A stretch of 64,000 nt of DNA from Streptomyces phaeolivaceus (GTDB lineage: Bacteria; Actinomycetota; Actinomycetes; Streptomycetales; Streptomycetaceae): NCBI RefSeq assembly GCF_009184865.1, contig NZ_CP045096.1, forward strand, positions 9,672,001 through 9,736,000, written 5' to 3'. How positions within the stretch are numbered: the stretch's first letter is position 1; each line of letters begins with the position of its first letter. Below the pieces are notes generated by a model. That model searched no databases. It saw only the letters and a list, made by a program, of their open reading frames with translations, and had not been told where the DNA came from. Positions 32,872 to 39,541 of the stretch are shown here, in pieces. Position numbers and translations under genes: made by a program.

Positions 32872-33810
32872 CTAGAACGCGCCGTAGTTGACCTGCCAGG
32901 TCGGCAGCCCCATCCGCCGCCACACGGCGACCACTCGGTCCCGGTCGTCCAGCGAGACCCGCACCGCGAACCGGTGCCGTACATGCCGGTCGAACAGCTC
33001 CGCCTTCACCACGTCGTCGCGCCGCTGGTCCTTGGCGGCCCGCATCCACAGCTCGTCGTACGGCACCTCGTGCGCGCGCAGCCACGACTCCGTCCGCTCC
33101 CGGTGCTCCTCACCGCGCCCGGAGAGCAGGACGATCACATCGCCGTCGGCGCTCCGGAAGGCGCGCAGCGCCCCGCGCACCGACTCGTTGAGGAGGTCCT
33201 CCTCGCAGCGCGTGAAGTCGTAGGCGCCCCGGTCGCCCCGGAGGGCGAGGGTGCCGTCGATGTCGCACATGACCGCCGGGGGCAGCGCCGGGTCGGCGGT
33301 GTACGGCTCGACGGCGGGCTCGTCGTTCAGCCACTCCGCCGTGAGCCGCCAGCCGCCCCGGCGGGACTTGGCGTGCTTGTCGGCGAGGAGCCGGATGATC
33401 TCCTCACCGACCGGCCGCTCCCGCTCGGCGTCGCGCCGCAGGCACTCCTCCACCGGTACGTCGGTGAAGTCGTGCACCACGAACGTGGCCAGCCCCGCCA
33501 CCGCCGCCTTCAGCCGCTTCGGGATGTGCGGTGTCATGTGCGTGTTGTCCACGACGACGTCGAAACCGCCCTCGACGGCCGCGCGCACCGCCGCGTCCTG
33601 GATCGCCAGCACGGTCTGCTCGTGCGCGTACGACCGGCGCTCGGCTCCCTCCGGCCCTTCCGGCAGCGGGACGTCGAGCATCTGCCGCAGATCGTCGAGG
33701 TTGACGCGGCGCATCCGCCCCTCGGACTCCGCCTGCAGCTTGCGCGCCGCCGTCGTCTTCCCCGAGGCGGGCAGCCCCGTCATGACGTGCACCACGGGCA
33801 CGGTCGGCAC
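32872..33810 (-). CDS. polynucleotide kinase/phosphatase (T4 Pnkp-like RNA end-healing enzyme)
   Basis: The product has 312 residues, close to the 301 of T4 Pnkp. The N-terminal half is a P-loop kinase ('HVMTGLPASGKTTAARKLQ') with 'VVVDNTHMTPHIPKRLK'. The C-terminal half is a HAD-type phosphatase, nucleophile block 'VMCDIDGTLALRGDRGAYDF', then 'VIVLLSGRGEEHRERTESWL' and 'WMRAAKDQRRDDVVKAELFD'. Together these phosphorylate 5'-OH and remove 3'-phosphate ends so that RNA can be rejoined. The gene starts two bases after the RNA ligase stop, so the two are surely one operon. RNA rather than DNA is inferred from the ligase partner. Confidence 0.88.
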   Translation of the reverse strand: MPTVPVVHVMTGLPASGKTTAARKLQAESEGRMRRVNLDDLRQMLDVPLPEGPEGAERRSYAHEQTVLAIQDAAVRAAVEGGFDVVVDNTHMTPHIPKRLKAAVAGLATFVVHDFTDVPVEECLRRDAERERPVGEEIIRLLADKHAKSRRGGWRLTAEWLNDEPAVEPYTADPALPPAVMCDIDGTLALRGDRGAYDFTRCEEDLLNESVRGALRAFRSADGDVIVLLSGRGEEHRERTESWLRAHEVPYDELWMRAAKDQRRDDVVKAELFDRHVRHRFAVRVSLDDRDRVVAVWRRMGLPTWQVNYGAF

Positions 33811-33812
33811 GA

Positions 33813-35006
33813 TCAGTTCTCCTCGTCGTATCTGAAGGGGTCGGACGCCTCCGGCCGGGTGGAACGGTACGTCACGAGCACGGTCGGCCGCCCGTCCAGG
33901 CGCTGGAACAGGGCGGGGCGCACGGCGGCGTCGGGCAGCTCCCGCACCGCGCGGGCGAACGCGCCCCGGTCACCGGTGAGATGCGCCAGCGAACGGAACG
34001 CCTCGTCGATCGCCCGCTCCCGGTCCTCCACCTGCTTCTCGATGCCCGCGACCACCCCGCGCACCCAGGCGTCGAACTCGTCGGGCACCTGCTCCAGGAG
34101 CGCGTCCAGGGGCCGGCCGCCGGACGCGACGACGTCCTCCGCCGAGCAGTTGAGGGCCTGTGCGATCTGCTTGGCGGGCAGTCCCGCGAACCGCTGAATG
34201 CCGTGACCGCGCCAGATGTCCCGCTCGGTCACCCCGGTGAGCACCTTGTGCAGCCGTACGTACTCGGCGAACTTGGCCTTCGCCCGCACCCCCGAGGCGA
34301 AGCGCAGCACGAAACCCTCCGCGTCGGTGCCCGTCGCCGCGCTGCCGCCGGGCAGCCGGTTCCCCTCGGTCATCGCCAGCAGCTCGGCGAGCGGCAGCGC
34401 GGGCCGCACGGTGACGACCGAGCCGATGCCCTGCCAGCCCACCGCGGCCTCCGCCAGGGCGATTTCCGTGCCGTCCTCGGCGAACGCGGCCAGCAGCACC
34501 ACGTCCCGCCGGTCGCCGTAGTCGACGACGATCCGGTTCTCCGGGTACAGGATCTCCGCCAGGTACGTCACCCCCGGCACCAGACCGGAGGTGTCCCTCC
34601 CGTCGAGCAGCCGCTGCGCCCAGGTCGCCTGCACGCTGATGAACGACCCCTTGGACGCCACCCGCCACCGGCCCGCGTAGTGGAACACCACCGCGAGGCT
34701 GCCGTCGACCTTGTCGTACACCTCGAACGGCTCGTCCGGGAGCGTCGGCGCGTACGGCTGACCCGCCTCGTGCTCACCGACGTTGAAGAACTTCGGCAGC
34801 GGCAGTGCGACGATCTCCCCGGTGCCGTCGTCGGCCACGAGTCCCCGGCAGCGCGTGGTGACGCGGTTCCACACCCGCTCGTACTGGCACGCCCTCGTGT
34901 ACGTGAGGATGGAGATCGGCAGCGAAGGGTGGGCCTTGCGGGTCACATGGCCAGCGGCAATGGCTGTCTCAAGGTCGCGGAGGCTGAAGAGGTCAGAGAG
35001 CTGCAT
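33813..35006 (-). CDS. T4 Rnl1-type RNA ligase
   Basis: The product has 397 residues. Nucleotidyltransferase motif I is 'VYDKVDGSLAVVF' (Lys99 as the AMP-accepting residue), with upstream 'RCRGLVADD', motif IV 'DAEGFVLRF' and motif V 'RAKAKFAEYVRLHK'. A helical C-terminal domain follows, as in T4 Rnl1. It would seal RNA 5'-phosphate and 3'-OH ends prepared by the adjacent Pnkp-like protein. The first about 30 codons look less GC-rich than the rest, and match in protein a separate fragment at 35755-35886. The ATG at 35006 lies inside the 3' end of the HNH frame. Confidence 0.88.
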   Translation of the reverse strand: MQLSDLFSLRDLETAIAAGHVTRKAHPSLPISILTYTRACQYERVWNRVTTRCRGLVADDGTGEIVALPLPKFFNVGEHEAGQPYAPTLPDEPFEVYDKVDGSLAVVFHYAGRWRVASKGSFISVQATWAQRLLDGRDTSGLVPGVTYLAEILYPENRIVVDYGDRRDVVLLAAFAEDGTEIALAEAAVGWQGIGSVVTVRPALPLAELLAMTEGNRLPGGSAATGTDAEGFVLRFASGVRAKAKFAEYVRLHKVLTGVTERDIWRGHGIQRFAGLPAKQIAQALNCSAEDVVASGGRPLDALLEQVPDEFDAWVRGVVAGIEKQVEDRERAIDEAFRSLAHLTGDRGAFARAVRELPDAAVRPALFQRLDGRPTVLVTYRSTRPEASDPFRYDEEN

Positions 35007-35722
35007 GGCAGCCCCCGCGAACGCTCTTGGACAATGCCGCGCTCGACCTCGTCGCCGTATCGCTCAACGATTTCGCGTGCCCACGCGACGAGATCACTCG
35101 CGCGTTGGCCTGCCGGTTGGGACTTGACCCAGAGCTCCAGGTTTTCTGGCCGGTTGTCGGGCCGGTTGTCGGGCCGGTCACCGTTCTTGTGGTGGGCGCT
35201 TTCTTCCGGCCGCAGCGGTCGACCGAGCTTCTCGGACAAGACCTTGCGGTGTTCGAGGATCCTGCCGTGCCGATTGGCGTTGGGGTGGTCCGGAGCAGAT
35301 ACGCGCCTGTAGCCCTCCTTGTTGACGTTTCCCGCGCCGGACGGGGCCAAGCCGCGGGGTGTGACGCCCGTGAGTCGTATGTATGCGTACCTGTGGTTGA
35401 TACAGAAGCCCCGGCTGCGGACTTCCTTGGCGCAATCGTCGTCCTGGCACGTGTCGTGCCGGATGCCGGACTCAAGCACAGCGCGGACGCGGGCAATCCG
35501 GTCCGCGATGCACGGTCGGCATGTGATGCGAGAACGCCCCAGCGTGGTCCGGAGGTTGAACTTGGTTTGCGCCCAAGCGGTGACGGCGACTTCTGACCAA
35601 CGGCGCTTCTTGAAGACGAGCGCAAGGTCGTCGCTGGTGCCGCATACGTCGCAAGCCTTGTCGGACAGTTAGGCGTTGAGCTGCCCAGCGCACCAGCGCG
35701 CGTGCTTTTCGGGTGTTGCCAT
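34943..35722 (-). pseudogene. HNH homing-type endonuclease, interrupted by an early stop
   Basis: From the ATG at 35722 the frame reads MATPEKHARWCAGQLNA, then TAA (35671-35669), then 'LSDKACDVCGTSDDLALVF', a C...C finger, 'RITCRPCIADRIARVRA', 'DTCQDDDCAKEVRSRGFC' and the nuclease core 'ILEHRKVLSEKLGRPL' with 'SAHHKNGDRP', 'NRPENLELW' and 'GQRASDLVAWAREIVERYG'. A 12-bp duplication (RPDNRPDN) lies in the active-site loop. The GTG at 35479 would give a protein lacking most Cys pairs. The frame ends at 34943, 64 bases inside the ligase gene. Base composition is visibly AT-richer than the neighbours, suggesting recent transfer. It could still be made by readthrough or a CTG start. Confidence 0.72.
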
Positions 35723-35754
35723 GCTGTCACTTCACAAGTGGCTGCGACGAGTTG

Positions 35755-35886
35755 AGGCGTGTACGTGTAGATGGACAGTGGCGGTTCCGGGTGCGACTTC
35801 CGTGTGACGTGCCCCGCTTCGAGTGCTGCCGCGAGCTCCTCCGGCGGCGGCAGCGGCTCGTGAAGAGTCAGGTGGGCCCGGCTCAT
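35755..35886 (-). pseudogene. N-terminal fragment of a second Rnl1-type RNA ligase
   Basis: After a strong ribosome site (AGGGGAGGAACCC) the ATG at 35886 begins MSRAHLTLHEPLPPPEELAA and then 'ALEAGHVTRKSHPEPPLSIYTYT'. This aligns with 'AIAAGHVTRKAHPSLPISILTYT' of the intact ligase. Homology stops at the YTYT codons, where the HNH element begins. It marks either the original 5' end of the ligase gene or the start of a lost tandem copy. Confidence 0.72.
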
Positions 35887-36017
35887 GGGTTCCTCCCCTT
35901 GGTGGTCCCTGATTGTCACGTGGGGGACGGGTTCGGCGCACGCGGGTTTTTCGGAGACCTCGCAGCTCAGTGGGCCGGCACCACCGCCCGCGACACGGCC
36001 GCCAGGAGTTTCGGCCT

Positions 36018-36318
36018 CCGCGCCCCAGCAGGAGACGATCACCAGGTCGCGGGCCGGGGCGATCCACAGCAGGCGGTTGCCGCCGTTGCCGCGGGAGCAT
36101 CGGCCGGTGGCGGGGGCGGAGGGCCACACGGTGCGGTCGTCGTTGAGCCACCGGGACAGGCCGTAGTTCGGTTTGACCCGGCACGGCGTCCATGACTCCT
36201 CGATCCACCTTCGCGAGACGACCCGGCGCTCGCCCCACACCCCGCCGCGCAGGCAGAGGCGGCCGACGCGCGCCAGATCGAGGGCGCTGATGCACGGGCC
36301 GCCCGCCCCAGTGAGCAC
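36018..36318 (-). pseudogene. C-terminal fragment of a serine beta-lactamase-type hydrolase
   Basis: The frame encodes 'GGPCISALDLARVGRLCLRG', 'WIEESWTPC', 'PNYGLSRWLND' and 'GNGGNRLLWIAPARDLVIVSCWG', typical of the last third of class C-like serine hydrolases. The Ser-x-x-Lys region is missing. No stop separates it from the ligase fragment, with which it is in frame. It is a truncated remnant. Confidence 0.65.
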
Positions 36319-36852
36319 CGCCGGTCAGCGTCGACCCCGTCCACCGCCCGTCCGGCCTGTTCCCGTACGCCCGCGCCAGTTCCTCCCGGTCCCCCCCTAC
36401 CGCGGGTCACCGGGCCGTCCTCCGCTCTCCGCCTCCAGCGCGTCCGCGGCACCCTCGCCGCCCGCCTCCTCCGCGTCCCCGGCCACTACTCGCACACCCG
36501 GCAGCCCGCCACCGTCGACGCGGCCCTGCACGCGCTGTGGGTGACCCCGTCCGTCACCCACACCGGCCCAGTGCCACGGTCCGGGAACCCGGAGTGAACG
36601 TGGCGAAGGACTGTTCCCAGGACTCGCCGGGCCAAGGTGATCCGCTGTGGGCTCACGACGGCCGCTCCCTCGGGTGTCCGTGCCAGGTCCCCGGCAACCT
36701 AGCCAAATGCGGGGGCAGTTGACCCCTCCTGGCGTCAAGTTCATGCCGTTCGTTCAGCAGTTCAGGTGAGGTGGTGCGTGCCGAGGTGGTGGGTGGGGAG
36801 ATTCGGGGTGATTCCGGCCTGGAAGTTCCGACTCAGTCGAAGGTGTTCGCCC
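36319..36852. other. gap with possible worn remnants before the carbonic anhydrase
   Basis: No sound gene is seen. A plus-strand frame ending near 36597 (SSALRLQRVRGTLAARLLRV, then ALHALW) vaguely resembles a transposase C-terminus. A 40-codon GTG frame at 36600-36722 (MAKDCSQDSPGQGDPLWAHD, then CPCQVPGNLAKC) has clustered Cys residues but no ribosome site or known relative. Both are low-confidence. Confidence 0.3.
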
Positions 36853-37659: not shown

Positions 37660-38578
37660 TCAGCCGTTGTCGGGCGAGAGCGTGGCCCGCCGCACCGGCT
37701 CCCGCTCGGACGGGCTCAGCGGCAGCCGCGGCCAGCCGTGGATGTCGCGTCGCAGCTGCCGGTCGTGCGTGGCGACGACGACCGCCGCGTCCGTGGCGTG
37801 CAGGGCGTCGGTGAGTTCGTCGACGAGGGCGATGGACAGATGGTTGGTCGGCTCGTCCAGCAGCAGGACGTGCGGCCGGGTGGCGAGCGCCGGCGCCAGG
37901 TCGAGCCGGCGCTGCTGTCCCGTCGACAGGTCGGCCACCGGCTTCCCGGCGTCGCGCGAGGTGAGCGGACCCAGCGCCCCGAGCCCGACGACCTCGTCCT
38001 CCTTGAGGATCCCGGCGGTCACCAGCCGCGCGGTGTGCGCCTCGTAGAGATCACGGGCCCGCCGCCGTGTCGCGTGCGGCGACTCCTGACCCAGGAGGTG
38101 CAGTCGGACGGTACGCGCCCGTGCACCCGGCCCGGCGTGGGCGCGAGGTGCCCGGCCAGGACCGACAGGAGCGTGGACTTGCCCGCCCCGTTCGGCCCGG
38201 TGACGGCCAGCCGGTCGCCGGACGCCCCCGCCACGGTCGTCGGCCGGTGCCGGCGCCCGTCCACGCTCACCTCCTGGGCGCGCAGCAGCAGGACCCCGGG
38301 CCGGGCGGGCGGTTCGGGCATGTGGAACCGCCGGGGCGGCACAGGCGCGGTGACGCTGTGGCGTTCGAGGTCGTTCTGCCGGCGGTGCACGGAACGGGCC
38401 GACGCACCGGCCCGGGTGGCCCGTTGGTGCTTGCCGGTGCCCTTGTCCGGGCGCCACCCCGTGATCAGCCGGTTCTGCGCCTCCGGCAAGGCCTGATGGA
38501 GGCGTGCCTGTTCGGTCCGCCGCTGCTCGTACTCGGCCTGCCAGCGCGGCAGTTCGGTCTGTCAGGCCGAGCCGGCAG
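37660..38578 (-). pseudogene. ABC-F ATPase remnant, macrolide-resistance type (C-terminal half, frameshifted)
   Basis: Only the inter-domain linker and second ATPase domain remain. The linker reads 'LPRWQAEYEQRRTEQARLHQ' and 'RASARSVHRRQNDLERH'-like, then Walker A 'VTGPNGAGKSTLLSVLAG'. A one-base shift near 38115-38125 (GGGCG run) moves the frame to 'VRLHLLGQESPHATRRRARD', signature 'LSTGQQRRLDLAPALA', Walker B 'HVLLLDEPTNHLS' and a closing 'AAVVVATHDRQLRRDIHGWPRLPL'. That ending resembles the TlrC/CarA/OleB group, ribosome-protection proteins of macrolide producers. It fuses upstream to a P450 fragment. Confidence 0.75.
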
Positions 38579-38604
38579 CTGAGGCGGCTGCCGGACTCGC
38601 GGGG

Positions 38605-39162
38605 CGCGGCGGTGCAGTCGAGGAGTTCGTCCTCCGGGTCCTCGCCGTAGTTCCCGGCGGCGTCGATGATCGCCTGGGACCACTGCCGCATGTCGTCGTC
38701 ACCGACCCCGCGCAGCCCCAGCAGGGCGGCGAGGTCACGGGCCGCGAGCGGTCCGGCGAAGTCGGCGACCAGATCGCCCGAGCCCCGCGCGGCGAGACCG
38801 GCGAGCAGGTCGGCGGTGTTGCGCCGGAACACCGGGAGCCAGTGCTCGTCGACGGCCCTCGGCCGCAGCGGTGCCTCGGCGGCCCGGCGCAGCCGCCGGT
38901 GGGCGGCACCGTCCTGGCGCAGCAGGGTCTCGCCGATCGACCGCGTCATCAGGGACGGCTTCTCCGACGACGGGAAGATCTCCGGATTCCGCTCGACACG
39001 CGGGACATCCGCGTGCCGGGTCACCGGACAGCGGCCCGCCCGCGGCACCCGGGCCACGGGGTCGTGCTCGCGGAGGTACCGGTAGAGGGGACACGGGTCG
39101 TGCCGCAGACGGCTCGGACCGATGTCGTGCTCGGCGGATGGACTGACGGTCGTCGCCGTCAA
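38605..39162 (-). pseudogene. cytochrome P450 N-terminal fragment
   Basis: About 186 residues remain from a TTG start with GAAGGGA upstream. 'DPCPLYRYLREHDPVARVP', 'VTRHADVPRVERNPEIF', 'LLRQDGAAHRRLRRAAEAPL' (C-helix) and 'WSQAIIDAAGNYGEDPE' (F-G region) are typical of bacterial P450s. The I-helix, ExxR and haem-Cys parts are absent. The frame runs on into out-of-frame ABC-F sequence, so the product would be non-functional. Confidence 0.75.
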
Positions 39163-39306
39163 CGGGGTCCCTTCCGGGCTGCCCCTGTCACGCCGCCGAC
39201 TGTGACCCACGGGAAGAGCCCCTGGTAAGCCCGTGGAAACGCGGTTTTCCTGACGCGCTTCATCAGGAATTCCGGATTTGGGGGCGGCGGCCGAGCACGG
39301 GGGCGG

Positions 39307-39382
39307 GTGCGGTGGTGCCGAGCCGTGGGCGGATGCGGTGGTGCCGAGCCGTAGGCGTCTGCGGCGGTGCCGAGCCCGTGGG
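39307..39382. repeat. three imperfect 26-bp tandem repeats
   Basis: Units built on GCGGTGGTGCCGAGCCGT recur three times, followed by two GGGTGGTGCGCG units up to 39419. They lie in the leader between the P450 remnant and the CoA-transferase gene. Spacing is continuous, so this is a plain tandem repeat and not a CRISPR array. Confidence 0.65.
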
Positions 39383-39541
39383 TGGGTGGTGCGCGTGGCC
39401 GTGGGCGGGTGGTGCGCGCCGCCGTACGTGCGGATCTCGCGCACAGACATGCGTCAAAGCGTCGTTGACGTGCCGAGTCCCGCCGGACGACGCTTGACGC
39501 CGACAGGGCAGGGCAGGACAGGACGCGAGAAGGAGTCGAGG

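What the first reader, a model, noticed from the sequence alone, without database searches (positions are those of the whole stretch)
34943..35886. HNH element at the ligase 5' end with a duplicated ligase N-terminus
An N-terminal ligase fragment (35755-35886) stops at the codons for YTYT; an AT-richer HNH gene follows, and then the intact ligase with its own version of the same N-terminal segment (AGHVTRKAHP...ILTYT against AGHVTRKSHP...IYTYT). The first codons of the intact ligase also look AT-richer than its body. One reading is that a homing endonuclease arrived together with a replacement first exon that keeps the target gene working. The other is a tandem duplication later split by the HNH gene.
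Basis: partly seen in the sequence, partly recalled or inferred. Interest (0 to 1): 0.7.

Follow-up and report, generated by a model that had tools for sequence, protein, structure and literature searches.

The report
Homing element with replacement gene start
A selfish DNA-cutting gene has inserted near the start of an RNA-repair ligase gene in a Streptomyces bacterium and brought its own rewritten copy of that gene start, so the gene should keep working while the cutter's target is presumably erased; phages show the same trick, and in the papers I could search I saw it described only in fungi.

Summary
On the minus strand an 862-bp insert (35757-34896) splits an RnlA-type RNA ligase gene between the codons for YTYT and R. 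It holds an HNH gene (decayed here) and a foreign 37-codon replacement of the ligase start. The displaced native start (35886-35758) is 0.87-0.90 identical in DNA to that of five relatives, the start of the intact gene only 0.64-0.67. Of 70 same-genus ligase loci read, 68 are empty sites; only the window and S. scabiei 87.22 carry the element. Another genus (G493) has the same architecture with an intact HNH gene. Grouping all carriers is not rejected for the first 37 residues but is for the ligase body (AU p 4e-35). Phages show the same device: Comrade at the ligase 5' end, and Kabocha at the terminase 3' end, where 18 of 57 bases but no residue differ from empty relatives. Closest known: yeast WHO elements and fungal mitochondrial mORFs, which replace 3' ends. 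New here: HNH nuclease, bacteria and phages, a 5'-end form. Cleavage and homing are inferred, not tested.

The parts
35758..35886 (-). displaced native 5' end of the ligase gene (43 codons, MSRAHLTLHE...LSIYTYT), now a remnant and probable left homology arm
   Evidence: 114/126 nt to native first segment of empty relative G248, 0.87-0.90 to five relatives; native leader and start conserved
34896..35757 (-). the whole insert, 862 bp: HNH gene plus replacement ligase start
   Evidence: joining the flanks gives a 403-aa frame without internal stops; no Rfam family above gathering, and no intron family at E <= 1, in 34000-36400
34943..35722 (-). HNH_3 homing-endonuclease gene, decayed (stop at codon 18, 12-bp tandem gain, lost stop)
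   Evidence: full-length relatives of 227-232 aa; PF13392 32.4 bits in intact P0002, 20.3 bits (below the 24.8 cut-off) in the window piece
35669..35671 (-). in-frame TAA in the HNH gene
   Evidence: also flagged as '1 TAA'
35147..35170 (-). tandem 12-bp units within the HNH catalytic region, one unit more than in relatives
   Evidence: sequence; four-residue insertion against 10 relatives
34896..35006 (-). replacement first segment of the ligase (37 codons, MQLSDLFSLRDLETAIAAGHVTRKAHPSLPISILTYT) carried by the element
   Evidence: 0.64-0.67 nt to native segments of five relatives, 83-86% aa to carriers with bodies 60-61% identical; tree
33813..34895 (-). native ligase body, RNA_lig_T4_1 family
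   Evidence: PF09511 52.3 bits; 917/1000 nt to empty relative G248
32872..33810 (-). partner gene: polynucleotide kinase with PNKP-type HAD phosphatase
   Evidence: PF25109 164.4 bits, PF13671 59.2 bits

Best explanation
It is a decayed homing element of the 'end-replacing' kind. An HNH endonuclease recognises the ligase gene around the codons for YTYT|R and cuts alleles that lack the element. The break is repaired from a donor allele, with the old ligase 5' fragment as left homology arm and the ligase body as right arm. Repair copies in the HNH gene plus the donor's own, sequence-diverged ligase 5' end. The recipient's old 5' end is left upstream as a dead fragment, and the ligase continues as a chimera started from the element's segment. 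That segment keeps a working protein start but changes the DNA, so the chimera should no longer be cut: an insertion inside a gene at little cost and with built-in resistance. Later the nuclease decays while the replacement start stays because the ligase now depends on it. Shown by sequence: structure, empty sites, foreign origin of the start, recurrence, decay of the nuclease gene. Inferred: cleavage, recognition site, resistance, homing by recombination, function and expression of the chimeric ligase.
For: Empty sites in 68 of 70 loci read, two carriers. Same element and junction in S. scabiei 87.22, HNH 5' part deleted. Same architecture in another genus, G493, HNH intact, different native fragment, ligase body 48% identical to the window's. 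Mosaic identities: window versus P0133 first segment 83%, body 60%; P0133 versus its body relative P0159 43% and 86%; window versus G248 54% and 93%. Trees. HNH and chimeric ligase share contig lengths in three pairs (P0002/P0127, P0003/P0133, P0004/P0260). Phage parallels with near-identical empty relatives: Comrade/Belfort and Kabocha/Gray. HNH-free terminase with a hybrid end next to the junction in ChisanaKitsune.
Against: No cleavage data; the window's HNH gene is broken, so activity must be argued from relatives. Carriers were recognised by their N-terminus, so their clustering in the 37-column tree is partly by choice; that tree is weakly resolved, a native row (P0252) falls among them, and one test of a body-based grouping on it gives only p = 0.063. 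Most carrier proteins are without DNA context. In Comrade-type phages no displaced native fragment was found. The left junction in G493 lies further upstream than in the window.
Confidence: 0.85

Rival explanations
1. Tandem duplication of the ligase 5' end, later split by insertion of an HNH gene.
For: Two N-terminal copies flank an HNH gene.
Against: The two copies are not each other's nearest relatives: the fragment is 0.90 and the intact copy 0.67 identical to the native segment of G248; holding the scabiei-group carriers with their body relatives in the N-terminal tree is rejected, p 0.005; the repeat finder reports no ligase-derived direct DNA repeat in 34800-35950.
Confidence: 0.04
2. 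Ordinary recombination swapped the ligase 5' end; the HNH gene is an unrelated passenger nearby.
For: A phage study places nuclease genes at borders of exchange (PMC10448857, title, abstract start and passages seen); for P0130, P0131, P0132, P0134 and P0254 I saw no HNH context.
Against: The HNH gene lies exactly between old and new 5' ends in the window, S. scabiei and G493, and next to the recoded end in Comrade and Kabocha; HNH and chimeric ligase share contig lengths in three more pairs.
Confidence: 0.1
3. A second, complete ligase gene arrived by transfer and took over, with the HNH gene as part of the transferred block.
For: First segments resemble those of distant ligases.
Against: The body from codon 38 on is native: 0.92 to G248, 0.89-0.94 in each 120-nt block, while only the first segment is foreign.
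Confidence: 0.01

Closest known systems
WHO elements of Torulaspora and Lachancea yeasts (Coughlan et al. 2020, PMC7282813; abstract, passages and the Discussion section read)
   Same: Endonuclease gene lies between a full-length chimeric host gene and a displaced fragment of the old end; the element carries the resistance-giving end of the host gene; the two ends of the host gene have different histories; old nucleases decay.
   Different: WHO nucleases are intein-zinc-finger fusion proteins related to HO and VDE, target mainly FBA1, replace its 3' end and home in meiosis; here the nuclease is HNH, the host is a bacterium, and the replaced end is the 5' end, so the element brings a new start codon.
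Fungal mitochondrial mobile ORFs with replacement C-termini (Glomus atp6/atp9/cox2/nad3; Allomyces atp6) (PMC3630166, passages read; the Allomyces paper only as cited there)
   Same: Endonuclease ORF plus foreign gene end; displaced native end beyond the ORF; hybrid gene found expressed as mRNA. The two atp6 ends are 63.5% identical in DNA but 91% in protein.
   Different: LAGLIDADG ORF in the atp6 case, mitochondrial, 3' ends.
Free-standing phage homing endonucleases (PMC10448857 and PMC12724721: abstract starts in listings and passages found by word)
   Same: HNH nucleases beside essential phage genes; presumed homing.
   Different: The passages that I saw describe insertion beside genes or in introns and no recoded or displaced gene ends; the wider picture of T4-type elements is recalled.
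Engineered home-and-rescue gene drives (PMC7968924, start of abstract in a listing only)
   Same: Nuclease placed in an essential target gene together with a rescue (that the rescue is a recoded target piece is recalled).
   Different: Engineered with CRISPR/Cas9 in Drosophila; here natural and protein-guided.

Membership tests
End-replacing homing elements (WHO / mORF kind) | Endonuclease gene between chimeric full-length gene and displaced native end | tested here: met
   Window, G296, G493, Kabocha; not met in Comrade-type phages, where no displaced end was found
End-replacing homing elements (WHO / mORF kind) | Element-less alleles with the native gene end | tested here: met
   68 of 70 ligase loci read; six Gordonia phages, one of them (ChisanaKitsune) with a hybrid end; Belfort and Karp
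End-replacing homing elements (WHO / mORF kind) | Different histories of the two parts of the host gene | tested here: met
   with the caveat on the short N-terminal alignment
End-replacing homing elements (WHO / mORF kind) | Nuclease cuts the native allele and not the chimeric allele | not testable with these tools
   Needs purified protein; only indirect support from recoding and the hybrid allele
WHO family proper | Intein-derived, HO/VDE-related zinc-finger nuclease | tested here: not met
   HNH_3 (PF13392) is the domain found in intact relatives; works like WHO, is not filed as a WHO member
HNH_3 homing endonucleases (PF13392) | HNH_3 domain above the curated cut-off | tested here: met
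   P0002 32.4 and P0003 29.5 bits against 24.8; the broken window copy scores 20.3, below it
Group I/II intron or intein | Self-splicing RNA or protein that must be removed | tested here: not met
   No intron family at E <= 1 in 34000-36400 nor at gathering in L237, L019, L249, L244; the ligase frame is complete downstream of the HNH gene. No separate intein search was run
T4 RnlA-type RNA ligase (target gene) | RNA_lig_T4_1 domain | tested here: met
   PF09511 52.3 bits against 28.3; far below the TIGR02308 equivalog cut-off (39.1 against 242.25)

The most novel reading that the evidence does not exclude
End-replacing homing elements are a widespread prokaryotic class, not a fungal oddity: HNH nucleases insert at either end of important genes (RNA ligase, terminase, RNA-repair nucleotidyltransferase, TROVE/Ro, WYL and others), each carrying a recoded replacement end that rescues the gene and makes it uncuttable. 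They move within and between phages and chromosomes, and leave chimeric genes behind when the nuclease dies: natural home-and-rescue drives.
Probability: 0.6. Interest if true: 0.87.

Novelty: new variant of a known kind. Interest (0 to 1): 0.77.

Why it matters
It shows how a selfish nuclease can sit inside a gene without an intron or intein: it brings a working, rewritten end. It extends the structural class of homing elements proposed from yeast to bacteria and phages, adds a 5'-end form and an HNH nuclease, and gives tractable phage pairs (Kabocha/Gray, Comrade/Belfort) in which cleavage, resistance and homing can be tested directly. It warns that gene starts and ends can have foreign histories, which misleads trees and start-codon annotation. 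It would also be a natural precedent for engineered home-and-rescue drives, with a resistant-looking hybrid allele found in the wild.

Tried and rejected
Tandem duplication split by HNH: rejected. Intron: no match. My first view of phage Comrade as an ordinary neighbour insertion without exon swap (after, on protein similarity alone, and so written in the notebook entry) was withdrawn after the DNA comparison.

The first duplicate scan with gapped scores was swamped by off-frame GC-rich noise; it was repeated with near-ungapped scores and with a cross-locus control. In one search nine of the 20 positive loci are tandem paralogous tail genes around an HNH gene, a different situation; L129 and L364 look doubtful, and L307 too (its reading frame runs through the HNH gene). 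None of these 12 is counted as a case.

Structure of an intact HNH relative: mean pLDDT 64.8, no PDB match at E <= 0.001; the profile search of solved structures found nothing at E <= 1. A second genus search to find further carriers showed only known handles and no new carrier. The viral scan with the Actinomadura HNH gave 14 loci, used only in the scan.

Full report
What is there. The window is G000:C2:9672001-9736000 of a 10.2-Mb two-contig genome. The finding lies on the minus strand: a ligase N-terminal fragment, an HNH gene, the intact RNA ligase (397 aa, PF09511) and a polynucleotide kinase with PNKP-type phosphatase. The insert is 35757-34896, 862 bp; without it the native fragment (43 codons) runs in frame into the ligase body, giving a 403-aa frame without internal stops. 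The HNH gene is broken in three ways: a TAA at codon 18, a four-residue (12-bp) tandem gain in the catalytic region against ten relatives, and a lost stop codon. No intron family matches.

Empty sites. A search of 392 same-genus genomes found ligase relatives in 83. I read DNA for 70 of these 83 (30 loci, 40); the other 13, which include the weakest and broken matches, were not read. In 68 of 70 the native start (MSQ- or MGQ-type, ending in YTYT or YSYT) runs directly into R.(C/A)QY; the two exceptions are the window and G296. A search with the first 46 residues over 323 genomes, which as far as listed are a subset of the first 392, gave 67 with a match: 100% and 96% for the two carriers, at most 68% for the 65 others.

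Which copy is native. The upstream fragment matches native first segments of five empty relatives at 0.87-0.90 DNA identity, whereas the intact gene's first segment matches them at 0.64-0.67; the body matches at 0.86-0.92, evenly along its length. Of the seven loci compared with each, the window's ligase body is nearest to empty G248 (0.918) and the S. scabiei body nearest to empty G108 (0.924), with 0.90 between the two carriers. The element is therefore scattered among close relatives; whether by one gain with losses or by two gains I cannot say. The replacement segments of the two carriers share 99 of 111 nt and the remaining HNH parts 239 of 290 nt.

The same element elsewhere. A family-wide search (394 genomes, 17 genera, E <= 1e-20) with an intact HNH protein found, besides the window, only G493 of another genus: native fragment VTQLNTLFPPDDLAAAIAAGHVTRKTHPTL, an intact HNH gene (227 codons from its ATG, open frame 230), then a ligase starting MKLSELFNLDDLEAAIVAGQVTRKAHPELPLSILTYT and a kinase gene. 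Its left junction lies upstream of the window's. In that genus 6 of 35 genomes, G493 included, have a ligase relative; I did not read the starts of the other five. A scan of 84,980 species genomes with an HNH profile returned 68 loci; S. scabiei 87.22 was the best match (94% over 90 residues) and no other locus with a long match exceeded 65%. Protein searches found further carriers: P0122-P0134, 13 of 36 hits to the first 50 residues, and P0254 and P0260. HNH and ligase proteins share contig lengths in three pairs (P0002/P0127 160968, P0003/P0133 12790, P0004/P0260 6463), which I take as the same contigs without having seen the DNA.

Mosaic history. For 11 carriers and 41 other ligases that I picked (21 of the 70 loci, G493, 30 of the 153 ligase proteins P0122-P0274): window and P0133 share 83% of the first segment but 60% of the body; P0133 and P0159 share 43% and 86%; window and G248 54% and 93%; window and G493 75% and 48%. 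Body tree: carriers as one clade rejected, AU p 4e-35; seven label changes on the tree, at least five forced by well-supported branches. First-segment tree (37 columns, weakly resolved): carriers as one clade not rejected (p 0.5); scabiei-group carriers together with their body relatives rejected (p 0.005); P0133 with its body relatives p 0.063, not rejected at 0.05. Since carriers were picked by their starts, the weight lies on the body tree and on the identities. P0252, counted as native, falls among the carriers' starts and could be a source lineage or an unrecognised carrier.

Phage parallels with near-perfect controls. (a) Streptomyces phages Comrade, Stigma and SparkleGoddess carry, immediately upstream of an RNA ligase, an HNH gene 53-54% identical to the intact relatives P0002 and P0003 over 58% of their length. 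Against Belfort, same phage species without the HNH gene, the first 147 nt of the Comrade ligase agree at 112 positions (40 of 49 residues) and the next 913 at 906; the switch falls after IYNYTEAS|QYKRYW, within about three codons of the position that aligns with the junction in Streptomyces; Karp is like Belfort. No displaced native end was found there. (b) Gordonia phage Kabocha has an HNH gene after its terminase gene. Against Gray and Hanem the 280 nt before and 300 nt after the site are identical; the last 18 codons plus stop differ at 18 of 57 nt with no amino-acid change; the displaced native end (56 of 57 nt) lies beyond the HNH gene. ChisanaKitsune has no HNH gene there, but its terminase end starts with about 22 nt of the recoded form and continues with the native form: what a resistant allele without element could look like. 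P0135 is similar at protein level: native start, but PISILTYT before the junction.

How common. I scanned 232 distinct HNH loci (from 267 fetched; the rest lacked a match, were duplicates or too short) for a protein-level duplicate across the nuclease gene: 20 of 232 same-locus pairs pass, against 22 of 4640 cross-locus pairs; of the 12 such cross pairs printed, several have the same target gene in both loci. Nine of the 20 are tandem tail paralogs. Inspected and credible: window, G296 and G493 (5' form); L179 (5' form, RlaP-type nucleotidyltransferase; flagged, score 48, below the limit); and 3' forms L249 (Kabocha), L102 (TROVE protein), L252 (WYL protein), L136, L296, L358 and L172. L249 and L172 scored 83 and 75 but are not among the 20, which also asks for sequence complexity. 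Only the Streptomyces ligase, Kabocha and Comrade cases were compared with empty relatives. L307, L364 and L129 are doubtful.

Mechanism. Recombination between donor fragment and recipient start on the left, and ligase bodies on the right, would copy in both nuclease and replacement start; the recipient's start becomes the new fragment. Resistance must come from sequence change in the replacement. At the ligase site the right flank is unchanged, so the altered recognition sequence should lie in the replaced part next to the junction; of its last 27 codons 10 equal those of G248, 8 differ silently and 9 change a residue. ChisanaKitsune points to the junction-proximal 22 nt. This is inference until cleavage is measured.

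Known or new. WHO elements in yeast work the same way at the 3' end of FBA1, with measured allele-specific cleavage (PMC7282813). Fungal mitochondrial mORFs carry replacement C-termini; the two atp6 ends in Glomus are 63.5% identical in DNA and 91% in protein (PMC3630166). In ten literature searches, of which I saw listings only apart from four papers, I saw no bacterial or phage case and no 5'-end case; the library lacks most subscription journals, so this is weak evidence of absence. Two phage HNH papers were looked at only by word search and do not use words beginning with 'synonymous' or 'recod'.

Noticed in passing
window 35900-36320, minus strand: Upstream of the ligase fragment lies what looks like the C-terminal remnant of a serine hydrolase/beta-lactamase-like gene (SRWLNDDRTVWP...GGNRLLWIAPARDLVIVSCW); the name is recalled and not tested.
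   Followed up: no
window 37660-39450, minus strand: A frame that joins P450-like and ABC-F-like sequence (LLLDEPTNHLSIALVDELTDAL); S. scabiei 87.22 has a similar ABC-F-like remnant upstream of its ligase (L019:430-660). Looks like shared gene decay; names recalled, not tested.
   Followed up: no
L269 (Gordonia phage ChisanaKitsune terminase 3' end): Hybrid terminase end without HNH gene: about 22 nt recoded as in Kabocha, then native; a candidate natural resistant allele.
   Followed up: partly
L179:3614-4829 (viral contig): 5'-form candidate at an RlaP-type RNA-repair nucleotidyltransferase: short MANTRLLLKTNHG fragment, HNH gene, then intact MKLANTRVLLKCHHG gene.
   Followed up: partly
L156 and L246: HNH genes near thioredoxin genes, on opposite sides, in two viral genomes; in L156 an RNA ligase follows the HNH gene directly.
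   Followed up: no
L212, L213, L274, L277, L278, L282, L315, L335, L338: HNH genes repeatedly sit between tandem paralogous tail-protein genes; may be whole-gene versions of the same trick or simple tandem paralogy.
   Followed up: no
L102:3441-5480 (Actinomadura spongiicola): TROVE/Ro-type gene with a duplicated C-terminal end across an HNH gene; with ligase and RlaP a third RNA-related target.
   Followed up: partly
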